This document shows positions 15,766 to 19,029 of a stretch of DNA of 21,049 bases, in pieces (the stretch's first letter is position 1; the number at the start of each line of letters is the position of its first letter). The position numbers and the translations under genes were made by a program. The stretch comes from a virus: positions 1 through 21,049 of the IMG/VR virus record IMGVR_UViG_3300030389_000580. One strand, given 5' to 3'. Below the pieces are notes generated by a model. That model ran no database searches, was not told where the DNA came from, and saw nothing but the letters and a program-made list of their open reading frames with translations.

Positions 15766-16139
15766 GGTTCAAATACCTGTCTAAATGTTGCTTGTATTAT
15801 TGCTCTGTTTACATACGGAATTGTCTTAGACCAAGTTTCACAAACAAACTTAAACGTACTTGCTTCTCCTGGTGGTTGAAAATCAAAACTTGTACCTTCT
15901 TCTCCACGATCATCTAAAAAAGCTTCCATTTTTACTGCATCTGCTTGCGATACATCAAAAGTAAAAGTAAATACTCTTGGATTTTGATTTAACTGTAAAC
16001 CAAAAACTATTCTTTGTTCATAACCATCGGCAAAACGAACTATACGAGTATTTGGTTTTGAAACTTTTCTTTGACCATATTTAGGAGTCGTTGCACCTGT
16101 GGTAAGCCCTCCTCCAATTGAATCATCAAAAGTAGCCAT
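15762..16139 (-). CDS. M: Minor tail protein M-like, 125 aa
   Basis: The protein has the pattern of lambda gpM: NTRIVRFADGYEQRIVFG near residues 30-50, VFTFTFDVSQADAVKMEAFLDD, a short 'GTSFDFQPP' stretch and a final beta segment IIQATFRQVFEP. In lambda gpM is 109 aa, so the length is usual. It sits directly after the tape measure (TAATG overlap of one base) and before L. It is thought to cap the tip and join it to the first ring of the tail tube. Confidence 0.87.
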   Translation of the reverse strand: MATFDDSIGGGLTTGATTPKYGQRKVSKPNTRIVRFADGYEQRIVFGLQLNQNPRVFTFTFDVSQADAVKMEAFLDDRGEEGTSFDFQPPGEASTFKFVCETWSKTIPYVNRAIIQATFRQVFEP

Positions 16140-18457
16140 TATGTAAGTAAACCTCCTGGTCTTTTTTGCTGTACTATTTCAGATTGTACTGCTGCTGAAA
16201 TAATACGACCAAGCTCCCTACCTTTTTGTTCATCACCTTCAACAGAAGAACCAGAAGCATCTACATTTACAACTATATTTGTTGCACCCATAGCATGATT
16301 TGGAGTTATTCTACCTGACACACCTGGGCTAAACAACTCAGGGCCACGTTCTCCTACAAGATAACCACCTCCTGCTGTTACAGGTCCACCATTTGCTCTT
16401 GGTTGAATTTTGCTATGACCAACAACGTGTCTATTAAGTTGATTAGCAGAAATTCCAACTCCTTGCTGACGCATACCAGCAGGATTACTACTCATACCTG
16501 TGCCAAAAGTTGGATCGAGAAAATTACTAAACAAGCCAAAAATACCTGATCTTATTTGTGCTGCTAACATTTGTGCTGCCATATCCAAAAAATGATCTGC
16601 TGTGCGTTCAAATAGATTTCTTAATGCTTCTTGTGCCGTCATTGAACCTTTTATAAGACCCTTAAATGATTCAGAAAAACTATTACCAATACTTTTTCCT
16701 AAAGCATCAATTTGAGTTAAAGGATCTAATAATCTGTTTAATTCATCAACAGGAGCTTTAATAATTGCTTGTCTTTCTAATTCTGCATTAAATTCTTTTT
16801 GTATTCTTAATCTTTCTTTAGCTTGTGCAATAAGAGCATCAAATTCTGCACCTGCTTTTTTAGCTTTAAGTTCTTCTAATTCATCTACGGACATAAATCC
16901 ACCACCACCTAATATTCCTGCAGATGGATTTTTAAGTTTAAATTTCCCTCTAAAAGGATTTAATTTTTCAAAAAAACCAACTTTTTTACTTTCTTGTTTT
17001 ATGATTTCTTTGTTTTTATCAATAATATTTCCTAGTAACTGATCTTGAGCAGCAGTAGCATCTTTACTTTTTAAAGTCTCTAAAGCACTAATAGCTTGAT
17101 TTATACCAAGCTCTTTTGACAATCCAGGTAATGCACTAATAATTGAAGCGTTATCTTTTAATCCAGCAAAAATATCAAAAGTTCCTTCTGATCCAAATGT
17201 TTTTAATAAAGTAATTCTCGCAGATGCTTCAAACTGTTTAAATGCTTTTAATGCTTCAAGTGCTTCATCTTTTGTCATTCCAAGAGATTTAGCAAATTCA
17301 GCTACTTGTTTTGCAGTAAATGTTGATGTACCACCTGTTGCTTGAATAGAAACATTTAATTTATCAACTGCTTTTCTGAAATCAATAGTTTCTTGTATTC
17401 TTGATGCAATCGCAGTACCAGCTATAGATAAACCAAAACCAAACCCTCCACCTAAAGCACCACCAGCTAAACCACCAATACCACCACCAGCAGCAGCTAA
17501 AGGACCTTGACCAAAGAGTAAAGGAAAACCTCCACCAATAAGACCACTAGAAATAGATCCTGATAATCTTCCTGCCCTACCTCGACTATTTGCAAATGGT
17601 CCTTGAGGATTAGCTCTTTTTCCAAATCCCATTCGATTAAAGAATGAAGGTCTTGCAGGTTGTGGACCTATTGGAGTTGCAAACTGGTTTGGATCTCCAA
17701 AAACTGCTCTATTATTTGATGCACTTAATAATTGTGCTGTTTTACCTGTATTCTTATCAATTTTCTTTTGATGCCTTAATTGTGCTTTCATTACAGCACT
17801 AAACGCAGGTCCAATAGGTCTTTCATATTGAGTACCTGGTCTAATACCAAATCCAGATGCTTCTCTTGACATTCGACTTGCTTCAAGATTTCTTAAAATT
17901 CTTGGATTATTATTTACTGTCATCATTGGCATTGGACCTTGCATTGGACCAAACATCGGACCTTGCATTGGTAATGGACCAATAAATTGTTGAGGACCAA
18001 AAGGAACAGAACTTCTACCAGCCCTTCGATTTTGATTTCTTCTATTTCTATCTATTGATTTTTGTGTTGCAGTATCAAATACAGTAGGTCCTGATACTTG
18101 CGAAGCACCTCGACTAAATTGTGCAAAATTTGACCCTCTTCTGATACTTTCTAATATTGCCTGTCTTTTTTGTAATTCAGCATTATATTCTCTTTCTGCT
18201 TGAATTAATTGTCTTGAAGCAGCTTTAAATTCTTTTGCACCTCTTACTGCTTCATTAAAATTTGTTTGTGCTTTTTTTAAAGCATTTCCAAAACCAATTA
18301 TATTAGAAATTCCAAATTTAGAAGTTTGACCTATCTCACTTAAACCTTGTACTGCTTCTCTTACTTTTTTACCTGTTTGATCTAATTGTTTATTAAAAGC
18401 TACAAGTTTATTAGTATTTTTTATAGAAACTAAAAAATCAATATTATAATTAGCCAC
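16139..18457 (-). CDS. H: Tape measure protein, 772 aa
   Basis: This protein sets tail length; at roughly 0.15 nm per residue, 772 residues would suggest a tail of about 115 nm (estimate from lambda). It starts with GTG (18455-18457). The N-terminal helical part (10-110) is followed by a Pro/Met/Gly stretch (GPMFGPMQGPM), then a Gly/Ala hydrophobic region (GPLAAAGGGIGGLAGGALGG) that may insert in a membrane during DNA entry. The C-terminus has ALRNLFERTADHFLDMAAQM and GGYLVGERGPELFSPGVSG, typical of lambda-type tape measures. No peptidase or lysozyme domain is seen. It lies just after the chaperone genes, as expected. Confidence 0.93.
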   Translation of the reverse strand: MANYNIDFLVSIKNTNKLVAFNKQLDQTGKKVREAVQGLSEIGQTSKFGISNIIGFGNALKKAQTNFNEAVRGAKEFKAASRQLIQAEREYNAELQKRQAILESIRRGSNFAQFSRGASQVSGPTVFDTATQKSIDRNRRNQNRRAGRSSVPFGPQQFIGPLPMQGPMFGPMQGPMPMMTVNNNPRILRNLEASRMSREASGFGIRPGTQYERPIGPAFSAVMKAQLRHQKKIDKNTGKTAQLLSASNNRAVFGDPNQFATPIGPQPARPSFFNRMGFGKRANPQGPFANSRGRAGRLSGSISSGLIGGGFPLLFGQGPLAAAGGGIGGLAGGALGGGFGFGLSIAGTAIASRIQETIDFRKAVDKLNVSIQATGGTSTFTAKQVAEFAKSLGMTKDEALEALKAFKQFEASARITLLKTFGSEGTFDIFAGLKDNASIISALPGLSKELGINQAISALETLKSKDATAAQDQLLGNIIDKNKEIIKQESKKVGFFEKLNPFRGKFKLKNPSAGILGGGGFMSVDELEELKAKKAGAEFDALIAQAKERLRIQKEFNAELERQAIIKAPVDELNRLLDPLTQIDALGKSIGNSFSESFKGLIKGSMTAQEALRNLFERTADHFLDMAAQMLAAQIRSGIFGLFSNFLDPTFGTGMSSNPAGMRQQGVGISANQLNRHVVGHSKIQPRANGGPVTAGGGYLVGERGPELFSPGVSGRITPNHAMGATNIVVNVDASGSSVEGDEQKGRELGRIISAAVQSEIVQQKRPGGLLT

Positions 18458-18488: not shown

Positions 18489-18683
18489 TTACCTTCTTTT
18501 GCCTCGTAAAGCACTAGCCCTTTGTGCTTGTTCTTGTTGTTTTTTATATTGCTCATTTTCTAATTCATTATATGCAGCCCAACCTATCATCTCTTCAATA
18601 GTCAAAGTTTCACATAATTCAGCTACAGTTTTGTGTAATGTTTTTGCTAAAGAAAATAAAAATTGCCAATCTTTATTAGCTTT
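18489..18683 (-). CDS. T: Tail assembly chaperone T part, made by frameshift from G
   Basis: This minus-strand frame codes ANKDWQFLFSLAKTLHKTVA, then ELCETLTIEEMIGWAAYNEL and a charged tail ending LRGKRR. The 'LAKTLHKTVAELCETLTIEEMIGW-AYNELE' part matches lambda gpT / DUF4035-type chaperone extensions ('...L.....ms..El.eW.ayy.le'). There is no ATG, GTG or TTG in the first 20 codons, and a stop lies just upstream in the same frame. It can therefore be made only as a continuation of G by a frameshift at 18681-18687. The G-T fusion would be about 179 residues. It binds the tape measure during tail assembly in related phages. Confidence 0.85.
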   Translation of the reverse strand, partial: KANKDWQFLFSLAKTLHKTVAELCETLTIEEMIGWAAYNELENEQYKKQQEQAQRASALRGKRR

Positions 18684-19029
18684 TTAAATCGGCTTTAGCC
18701 TCGTTTACCTCCTTATCAGCTCCAGCATTTACCATTGCTAATTGTATTTCTTCAAGGACAGATGCTTCTATTTCCCTTCTTAAAGATGCTTTATCTCCAT
18801 CTTGAAAAAGTCTTTGACCATCTTTATCTAATGATTTTTCGATCATCATCTGCAAAGCATAATCGTTTACATCATCAGAATTACTTTTTTTCTGTATTGC
18901 TTCTCTTTCAGCAATAGTTAATGGATGCCAATAAACAGTAAGAATAATCTCATCATCTTGTTTGATGTCATGCTTATAAAGTTGAGAAACACCAAACTTG
19001 TTTCTTAACAGATCAACTGCTCTAGTCAT
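18676..19029 (-). CDS. G: Tail assembly chaperone G, 117 aa
   Basis: The protein has MTRAVDLLRNKFGVSQLY at the start, a core ILTVYWHPLTIAEREAIQKK and a helical rest rich in charged residues, like many G-type tail chaperones. It sits between tail terminator and tape measure, the usual place. It ends in GAT TTA AAA AGC TAA, at which a frameshift into the T frame is likely, so two products (G alone and G-T) are expected. Two Shine-Dalgarno-like stretches lie inside its end (AAGGAGGT at 18707-18714, GAGG at 18699-18702), which may stimulate shifting. Confidence 0.85.
   Translation of the reverse strand: MTRAVDLLRNKFGVSQLYKHDIKQDDEIILTVYWHPLTIAEREAIQKKSNSDDVNDYALQMMIEKSLDKDGQRLFQDGDKASLRREIEASVLEEIQLAMVNAGADKEVNEAKADLKS
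18681..18687 (-). promoter_or_regulatory. Probable programmed frameshift site G to G-T
   Basis: The zero frame reads GAT TTA AAA AGC TAA. The T frame begins ...AAA GCT AAT, which is +1 (or -2) relative to G. The A-run lets the AAA-bound Lys tRNA slip +1 with full pairing. A U UUA AAA heptamer for -1 shifting is also present, but the -1 frame stops after 11 codons without T homology. Confidence 0.65.

What the first reader, a model, noticed from the sequence alone, without database searches (positions are those of the whole stretch)
18489..18730. Tail chaperone G-T frameshift of +1 (or -2) type at an A-run
The T frame has a clear gpT-like sequence but no start codon, and it opens only 7 nt before G's stop codon begins. 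The shift from G to T is +1 or -2, whereas lambda-type phages mostly use -1. A U UUA AAA heptamer typical of -1 shifting is present too, but -1 leads to an 11-codon dead end. P-site Lys tRNA on AAA can slide +1 onto AAA with full pairing, before an AGC codon and a UAA. Shine-Dalgarno-like stretches lie 10 and about 20 nt upstream of the slip. Non-lambda modes are known in a few phages but rarely characterised.
Basis: partly seen in the sequence, partly recalled or inferred. Interest (0 to 1): 0.65.

Follow-up and report, generated by a model that had tools for sequence, protein, structure and literature searches.

The report
Forward (+1) frameshift makes tail chaperone
In a large group of marine phages, probably infecting Prochlorococcus, and again in a separate group of aquatic phages, ribosomes appear to skip one base forward at the sequence AAA-AGC to make the long form of a tail-building helper protein, whereas their cousins slip one base backward to do the same job.

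Summary
Gene T (window 18489-18683, minus strand) encodes a gpT-like domain, has no usable start codon, and lies in the +1 frame of gene G. It is not a sequencing error: 264 loci of this lineage keep the +1 layout with no exception. The only invariant slip string is AAA_AG(C). The Lys codon is AAA in 201/201 unique sequences (27% AAG elsewhere in G) and Ser is AGC in 193/201. The base before AAA can be A, G or C, so the U UUA AAA heptamer is irrelevant and -2 re-pairing is implausible. G's stop need not be adjacent. A second lineage (79/79 scored loci) has the same AAAAGC +1 site (ATG AAA AGC, G stop a few codons later). It nests among relatives that use -1 sites (KBS-S-2A group 77 loci; HTVC202P group 78 loci), so +1 probably arose at least twice. 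A strong anti-SD-binding site precedes every unique junction of the window lineage, with no synonymous change in its main form. Its spacing is 22-23 or 17 nt, outside the reported 3 nt (+1) and 9-14 nt (-1). Best reading: programmed +1 ribosomal frameshift by P-site tRNA-Lys slippage at AAA_AGC. New variant of a known kind; untested experimentally.

The parts
18676..19029 (-). gene G, 117 aa tail assembly chaperone, short form
   Evidence: PHROG_20784 E=1.5e-23 and PHROG_344 'tail assembly chaperone' E=1e-5; lies between the tail terminator gene and the tape measure gene
18489..18683 (-). T frame, stop to stop; gpT-like domain made only as a G-T fusion (116 + 63 = 179 aa)
   Evidence: PHROG_337 tail protein E=2e-6; T-frame substitutions concentrate in third codon positions; no early start codon
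18682..18684 (-). P-site Lys codon AAA of the slip site
   Evidence: AAA in 201/201 unique relatives, never AAG
18679..18681 (-). A-site codon AGC; its first base is skipped, next codon read is GCT (18680-18678)
   Evidence: AGC 193, AGT 6 of 201 unique, AGG in rare cases; AGC is rare in this lineage (7.5 per 1000) against GCT 41.5
18676..18678 (-). stop codon TAA of G
   Evidence: adjacent to AGC in most relatives but displaced in others, so not essential
18684..18686 (-). TAA that closes the T frame directly upstream and confines the shift to the AAA codon
   Evidence: sequence; TAA or TGA in most relatives, TCA where the preceding codon is CTC
18707..18715 (-). TAAGGAGGT, perfect Shine-Dalgarno-like sequence inside G, 23 nt before AAA
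   Evidence: anti-SD energy <= -8.6 kcal/mol in 187/187 unique junctions; AAG 129/129 and GAG 111/111; spacing 23/22/17
18699..18702 (-). GAGG, secondary SD-like stretch 14 nt before AAA
   Evidence: GAGG or CAGG in the window sub-lineage; weak, not kept in the other sub-lineage

Best explanation
The G-T pair is expressed by programmed +1 ribosomal frameshifting. Most ribosomes finish G. A minority pause with peptidyl-tRNA-Lys on AAA (18684-18682) and the AGC codon in the A site; tRNA-Lys lets go and re-pairs, fully matched, on the overlapping AAA one base 3'. Ala-tRNA then reads GCU and translation continues into T, giving ...ADLK-ANKDWQF... (179 aa). As in lambda, gpG and gpGT would together chaperone tape measure and tail tube protein in a fixed ratio. 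The SD-like sequence 17-23 nt upstream is under selection and probably sets efficiency through pairing with 16S rRNA, by a route not yet described. Shown here: frame, absence of a T start, conservation of AAA_AGC and of the SD, two lineages. Inferred: that shifting happens, its efficiency, tRNA-Lys slippage as the mechanism, the SD's role, the chaperone function.
For: All 264 scored loci of the lineage have T in +1, 0 exceptions, among them an independent Prochlorococcus single-cell genome contig. Lys codon AAA 201/201, Ser AGC 193/201; SD codons AAG 129/129 and GAG 111/111. Strong anti-SD site in 187/187 unique junctions, and it is the strongest in G for 170/180. None of 66 other in-frame AAA_AGC in longer ORFs of these loci has such an SD within 36 nt. 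A second lineage, 79/79 scored loci in +1 with invariant ATG AAA AGC (AAA 56/56 where AAG is 62% of Lys codons). -1 relatives show -1 heptamers instead. T diverges like a coding frame. G and T match tail chaperone and tail protein families.
Against: No protein, reporter or ribosome-profiling data. AAA_AGC is not avoided elsewhere in these genomes (AAA fraction before AGC 0.85 against 0.81 overall), so it is not strongly shift-prone alone. AGC is rare in the window lineage but the commonest of the Ser codons counted in the second lineage. SD spacing fits neither published rule (PMC5009743). Sequences are related, so counts overstate independence.
Confidence: 0.86

Rival explanations
1. -2 ribosomal frameshift (as in phage Mu), giving LKKAN in place of LKAN.
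For: Same final frame; -2 is documented for Mu (PMC5009743). The secondary GAGG lies 14 nt upstream, a spacing typical of backward shifts.
Against: The base before AAA is A, G or C, so -2 re-pairing of tRNA-Lys would be on UAA, UGA or UCA; tRNA-Ser on AGC cannot re-pair on AAA. The invariant part, AAAA(G), is exactly what +1 needs.
Confidence: 0.05
2. T is translated on its own by internal or coupled initiation, the AAGGAGG being its ribosome binding site.
For: Perfect SD just upstream; other genes in the window use SDs.
Against: No ATG/GTG/TTG at a usable distance after the SD leads into T. The first possible T-frame starts lie 5-60 codons after the slip at scattered places in relatives, often inside the conserved domain. 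AAA_AGC conservation would be unexplained.
Confidence: 0.04
3. RNA polymerase slippage on the A-run makes mRNAs with one base less or two more.
For: The site is an A-run.
Against: The run is only 4 A in many relatives (TTG AAA AGC, CTC AAA AGC); slippage generally needs about 8-9 (general knowledge). The SD would be unexplained.
Confidence: 0.02
4. The +1 frameshift is real but the SD-like sequence is unrelated to it (protein-level constraint or another use) and AAA_AGC works alone. This is a rival to the SD part of the best explanation only.
For: Spacing is outside known stimulatory ranges; the HTVC -1 relatives have no SD; in the second lineage it is weaker and partly explained by Glu codons.
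Against: Zero synonymous variation at AAG and GAG, and pairing kept at -8.6 kcal/mol or better when the amino acids change.
Confidence: 0.3

Closest known systems
Lambda G-T frameshift (and related tail assembly chaperones, Xu, Hendrix and Duda 2004)
   Same: Same gene order (tail proteins, G, T without start, tape measure), same short and fusion products, shift near the end of G
   Different: Lambda shifts -1 at G GGA AAG; here +1 at AAA_AGC, with a long-spaced SD
Phage Mu (-2 shift)
   Same: Downstream ORF in the same relative frame (+1 = -2)
   Different: Here the sequence around the slip does not allow -2 re-pairing
Listeria phages PSA, A118, A500 (tsh, +1 at CCC_UGA)
   Same: +1 slip of a P-site tRNA, stop codon close by
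   Different: Tail shaft gene and Pro codons there; here the chaperone, Lys AAA, sense codon AGC in the A site, adjacent stop not needed
Haloarchaeal virus HSTV-2 and SEA-PHAGES forward-shift chaperone annotations (PRFect)
   Same: +1 shift annotated or deduced between the two chaperone genes
   Different: Sites not tested experimentally in the sources read and, for SEA-PHAGES, in GC-rich genomes; no AAA_AGC motif found in the papers read
prfB (release factor 2) +1 frameshift
   Same: Internal SD plus P-site slippage +1
   Different: SD 3 nt from the shift codon and UGA in the A site; here 17-23 nt and AGC
Cyanophage KBS-S-2A and pelagiphages HTVC202P/HTVC026P
   Same: Homologous G and T, same place in the genome
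   Different: They have T in the -1 frame with A AAA AAC heptamers

Membership tests
Lambda-type G-T tail assembly chaperone pair | G-like gene upstream of a tape measure gene, followed by an overlapping gpT-like ORF | tested here: met
   PHROG_344 and PHROG_337 matches; tape measure at 16139-18457
Lambda-type G-T tail assembly chaperone pair | T lacks its own start and lies out of frame with G | tested here: met
Lambda-type G-T tail assembly chaperone pair | -1 shift at an X XXY YYZ heptamer | tested here: not met
   T in +1 in 264/264 scored loci; the -1 frame is a dead end of about 15 codons
Lambda-type G-T tail assembly chaperone pair | fusion protein made at a few percent and needed for tail assembly | not testable with these tools
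   needs protein data
Programmed +1 ribosomal frameshift by P-site slippage | P-site tRNA can re-pair in the +1 frame | tested here: met
   AAA to AAA; AAAAG in all 187 unique junctions
Programmed +1 ribosomal frameshift by P-site slippage | slow A-site codon or stop codon | tested here: inconclusive
   AGC rare in the window lineage, common in the second lineage; stop often displaced
Programmed +1 ribosomal frameshift by P-site slippage | conservation of the shift site above that of the protein | tested here: met
prfB-type SD-stimulated +1 frameshift | SD 3 nt 5' of the shift codon | tested here: not met
   spacing 23, 22 or 17 (window lineage), mainly 20 or 17 (second lineage)
Mu-type -2 frameshift | slip sequence allowing re-pairing two bases back | tested here: not met

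The most novel reading that the evidence does not exclude
A third kind of internal SD stimulation: an SD-16S rRNA duplex 17-23 nt upstream promotes +1 shifting, for instance because the duplex ruptures as the ribosome reaches AAA_AGC and the mRNA springs forward one base. By moving the SD outward (from 7-10 nt in the KBS -1 relatives to 17-23 nt) and changing a few slip bases, these phages would have reversed the direction of the same programmed frameshift at least twice.
Probability: 0.3. Interest if true: 0.75.

Novelty: new variant of a known kind. Interest (0 to 1): 0.55.

Why it matters
It gives a +1 slip motif, AAA_AGC, in hundreds of uncultured aquatic phages whose T gene is unannotated in every annotated relative looked at. 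The same gene pair occurs in fairly close relatives (G about 71% identical between the second +1 lineage and KBS-S-2A) with -1 sites, which allows a clean comparison of what sets frameshift direction. The conserved SD sits at a distance where current rules predict no effect.

Tried and rejected
Conserved RNA structure: folds are no better than shuffles (z -0.5 to -0.6 for the long stretches). The predicted long stem around the slip has no compensatory pair, and all seven of its outer pairs form in only 60 of 187 sequences; the small GGC-NAAA-GCC hairpin is absent from one sub-lineage. Avoidance of AAA_AGC elsewhere: not seen. Stop codon as the necessary pause: rejected by displaced stops. Synonymous shuffles give an equally strong SD in a mean of 9% of cases per sequence, so the SD's significance rests on its recurrence, not on one sequence. 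Pfam and NCBIfam give nothing useful for G or T. A text search for AAAAGC with frameshift listed 20 of 915 papers, none on such a site by title or abstract; Xu et al. 2004 was not available to read. A single +1 clade was tested and disfavoured (AU p = 0.029), but one gain with later losses is not excluded. Structure prediction was not run.

Full report
WHAT IS THERE. The window is a 21,049-base virus record carrying a siphovirus-like tail module on the minus strand: head-tail connector, neck, tail terminator, G, T, tape measure, minor tail proteins, tail tip J. G (18676-19029) ends GAT TTA AAA AGC TAA. The T frame is open from 18683 to 18489 and encodes KANKDWQFLFSLAKTLHKTVAELCETLTIEEMIGWAAYNELE..., a gpT-like domain (PHROG_337, E=2e-6). 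A TAA directly upstream in the T frame confines any frame change to the AAA codon. T is +1 relative to G; the -1 frame is a dead end of 15 codons.

NOT AN ERROR, NOT CHANCE. Two protein searches and one DNA pattern search of IMG/VR and a scan of bacterial genomes gave 264 loci of this lineage in which both genes could be scored; all 264 are +1 (earlier subsets). One is a 41-kb contig of the Prochlorococcus single-cell genome AG-418-M08, which points to Prochlorococcus as a host. Among 201 unique G sequences the slip Lys codon is AAA 201/201 and the next codon AGC 193 and AGT 6, with AGG in a few, while Lys codons in G are 27% AAG overall and Ser uses six codons. The base before AAA is A, G or C, and G's stop may be TAA, TAG or TGA, next to AGC or one to two codons later. 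So the conserved unit is AAA_AG(C), the tetranucleotide AAAA being what lets tRNA-Lys move from AAA to AAA.

A SECOND LINEAGE AND THE -1 RELATIVES. Distant relatives (cyanophages KBS-S-2A, S-H1, MED4-184; pelagiphages HTVC202P and HTVC026P) have T in the -1 frame. Larger samples confirm it: HTVC group 78 loci, nearly all at A AAA AAC; [quoted passage not shown] The one exception in the KBS scan was +1 (L357). Searching with it gave a whole lineage, 79/79 scored loci in +1, all ATG AAA AGC (or the same string a few codons earlier), with G's stop usually 15 nt and at most 27 nt after the AAA begins; AAA 56/56 and AGC 56/56, although AAG makes up 62% of its Lys codons in G. In the G tree this lineage lies inside the KBS -1 group (its own branch has support 98); forcing all +1 rows into one clade is rejected at p = 0.029. 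Two gains of the same hexamer are the simplest reading; a gain with losses remains possible, and the tree rests on few columns.

THE SD-LIKE SEQUENCE. Every unique junction of the window lineage (187) has an anti-SD-binding site of -8.6 kcal/mol or better within 36 nt, and it is the strongest in G for 170 of 180. In its main form, AAG GAG, there is no synonymous change at all (129/129 and 111/111). Spacing from GGAGG to AAA is 23 nt (149 unique), 22 (15) or 17 (24) in the window lineage and mainly 20 or 17 in the second; the KBS -1 group has SDs 7-10 nt before the A-run and the HTVC group mostly none. Of 66 other in-frame AAA_AGC in longer ORFs, none has a comparable SD. Published spacings are 3 nt for +1 and 9-14 nt for -1 (PMC5009743). 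In the window, G itself and the tape measure gene lack an SD at their starts, while some others, J included, have one. In the second lineage the SD is weaker and partly follows from Glu codons.

MECHANISM. Best supported: +1 slippage of peptidyl-tRNA-Lys from AAA to AAA while AGC waits in the A site, then Ala on GCN. In the window lineage AGC is rare (7.5 per 1000) and GCT frequent (41.5), which favours a forward slip; in the second lineage AGC is common (32.9), so rarity is not general. AAA_AGC is not avoided elsewhere, so a stimulator is likely, the SD being the only candidate found: no conserved RNA structure was seen. How a distant SD would help is unknown; rupture of the duplex near the slip site is one testable idea (speculation).

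NOVELTY. Tail chaperone frameshifts of -1, -2 and +1 type are known (PMC5009743; PMC10885494). What appears new is the AAA_AGC motif, its recurrence in two lineages of a family that otherwise uses -1, and the conserved long-spaced SD. Nothing here has been tested in the laboratory, and the literature check covered open-access papers only.

Noticed in passing
L083-L089: T is not annotated as such in the annotated relatives examined (KBS-S-2A, S-2L, MED4-184, MED4-117, HTVC202P, HTVC026P; S-H1 has only a small hypothetical ORF there), although a -1 T frame follows G in each.
   Followed up: yes
L443:5001-5535: A 41-kb contig in Prochlorococcus single-cell genome AG-418-M08 carries this phage type, suggesting a Prochlorococcus host.
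   Followed up: partly
[quoted passage not shown]
   Followed up: no
window 16139-18457 and 18676-19029: The tape measure gene starts with GTG and has no SD, and G has none either, while J and several others have strong SDs.
   Followed up: partly
L444-L523, position +9 after AAA: In the second lineage a further Lys codon three codons after the slip is also always AAA; it overlaps T codons, so this may be dual coding.
   Followed up: no
window 18691-18693: The Ala codon GCC three codons before the slip is strongly preferred (160/201) although GCC is rare elsewhere in these genes; no structure explains it.
   Followed up: partly
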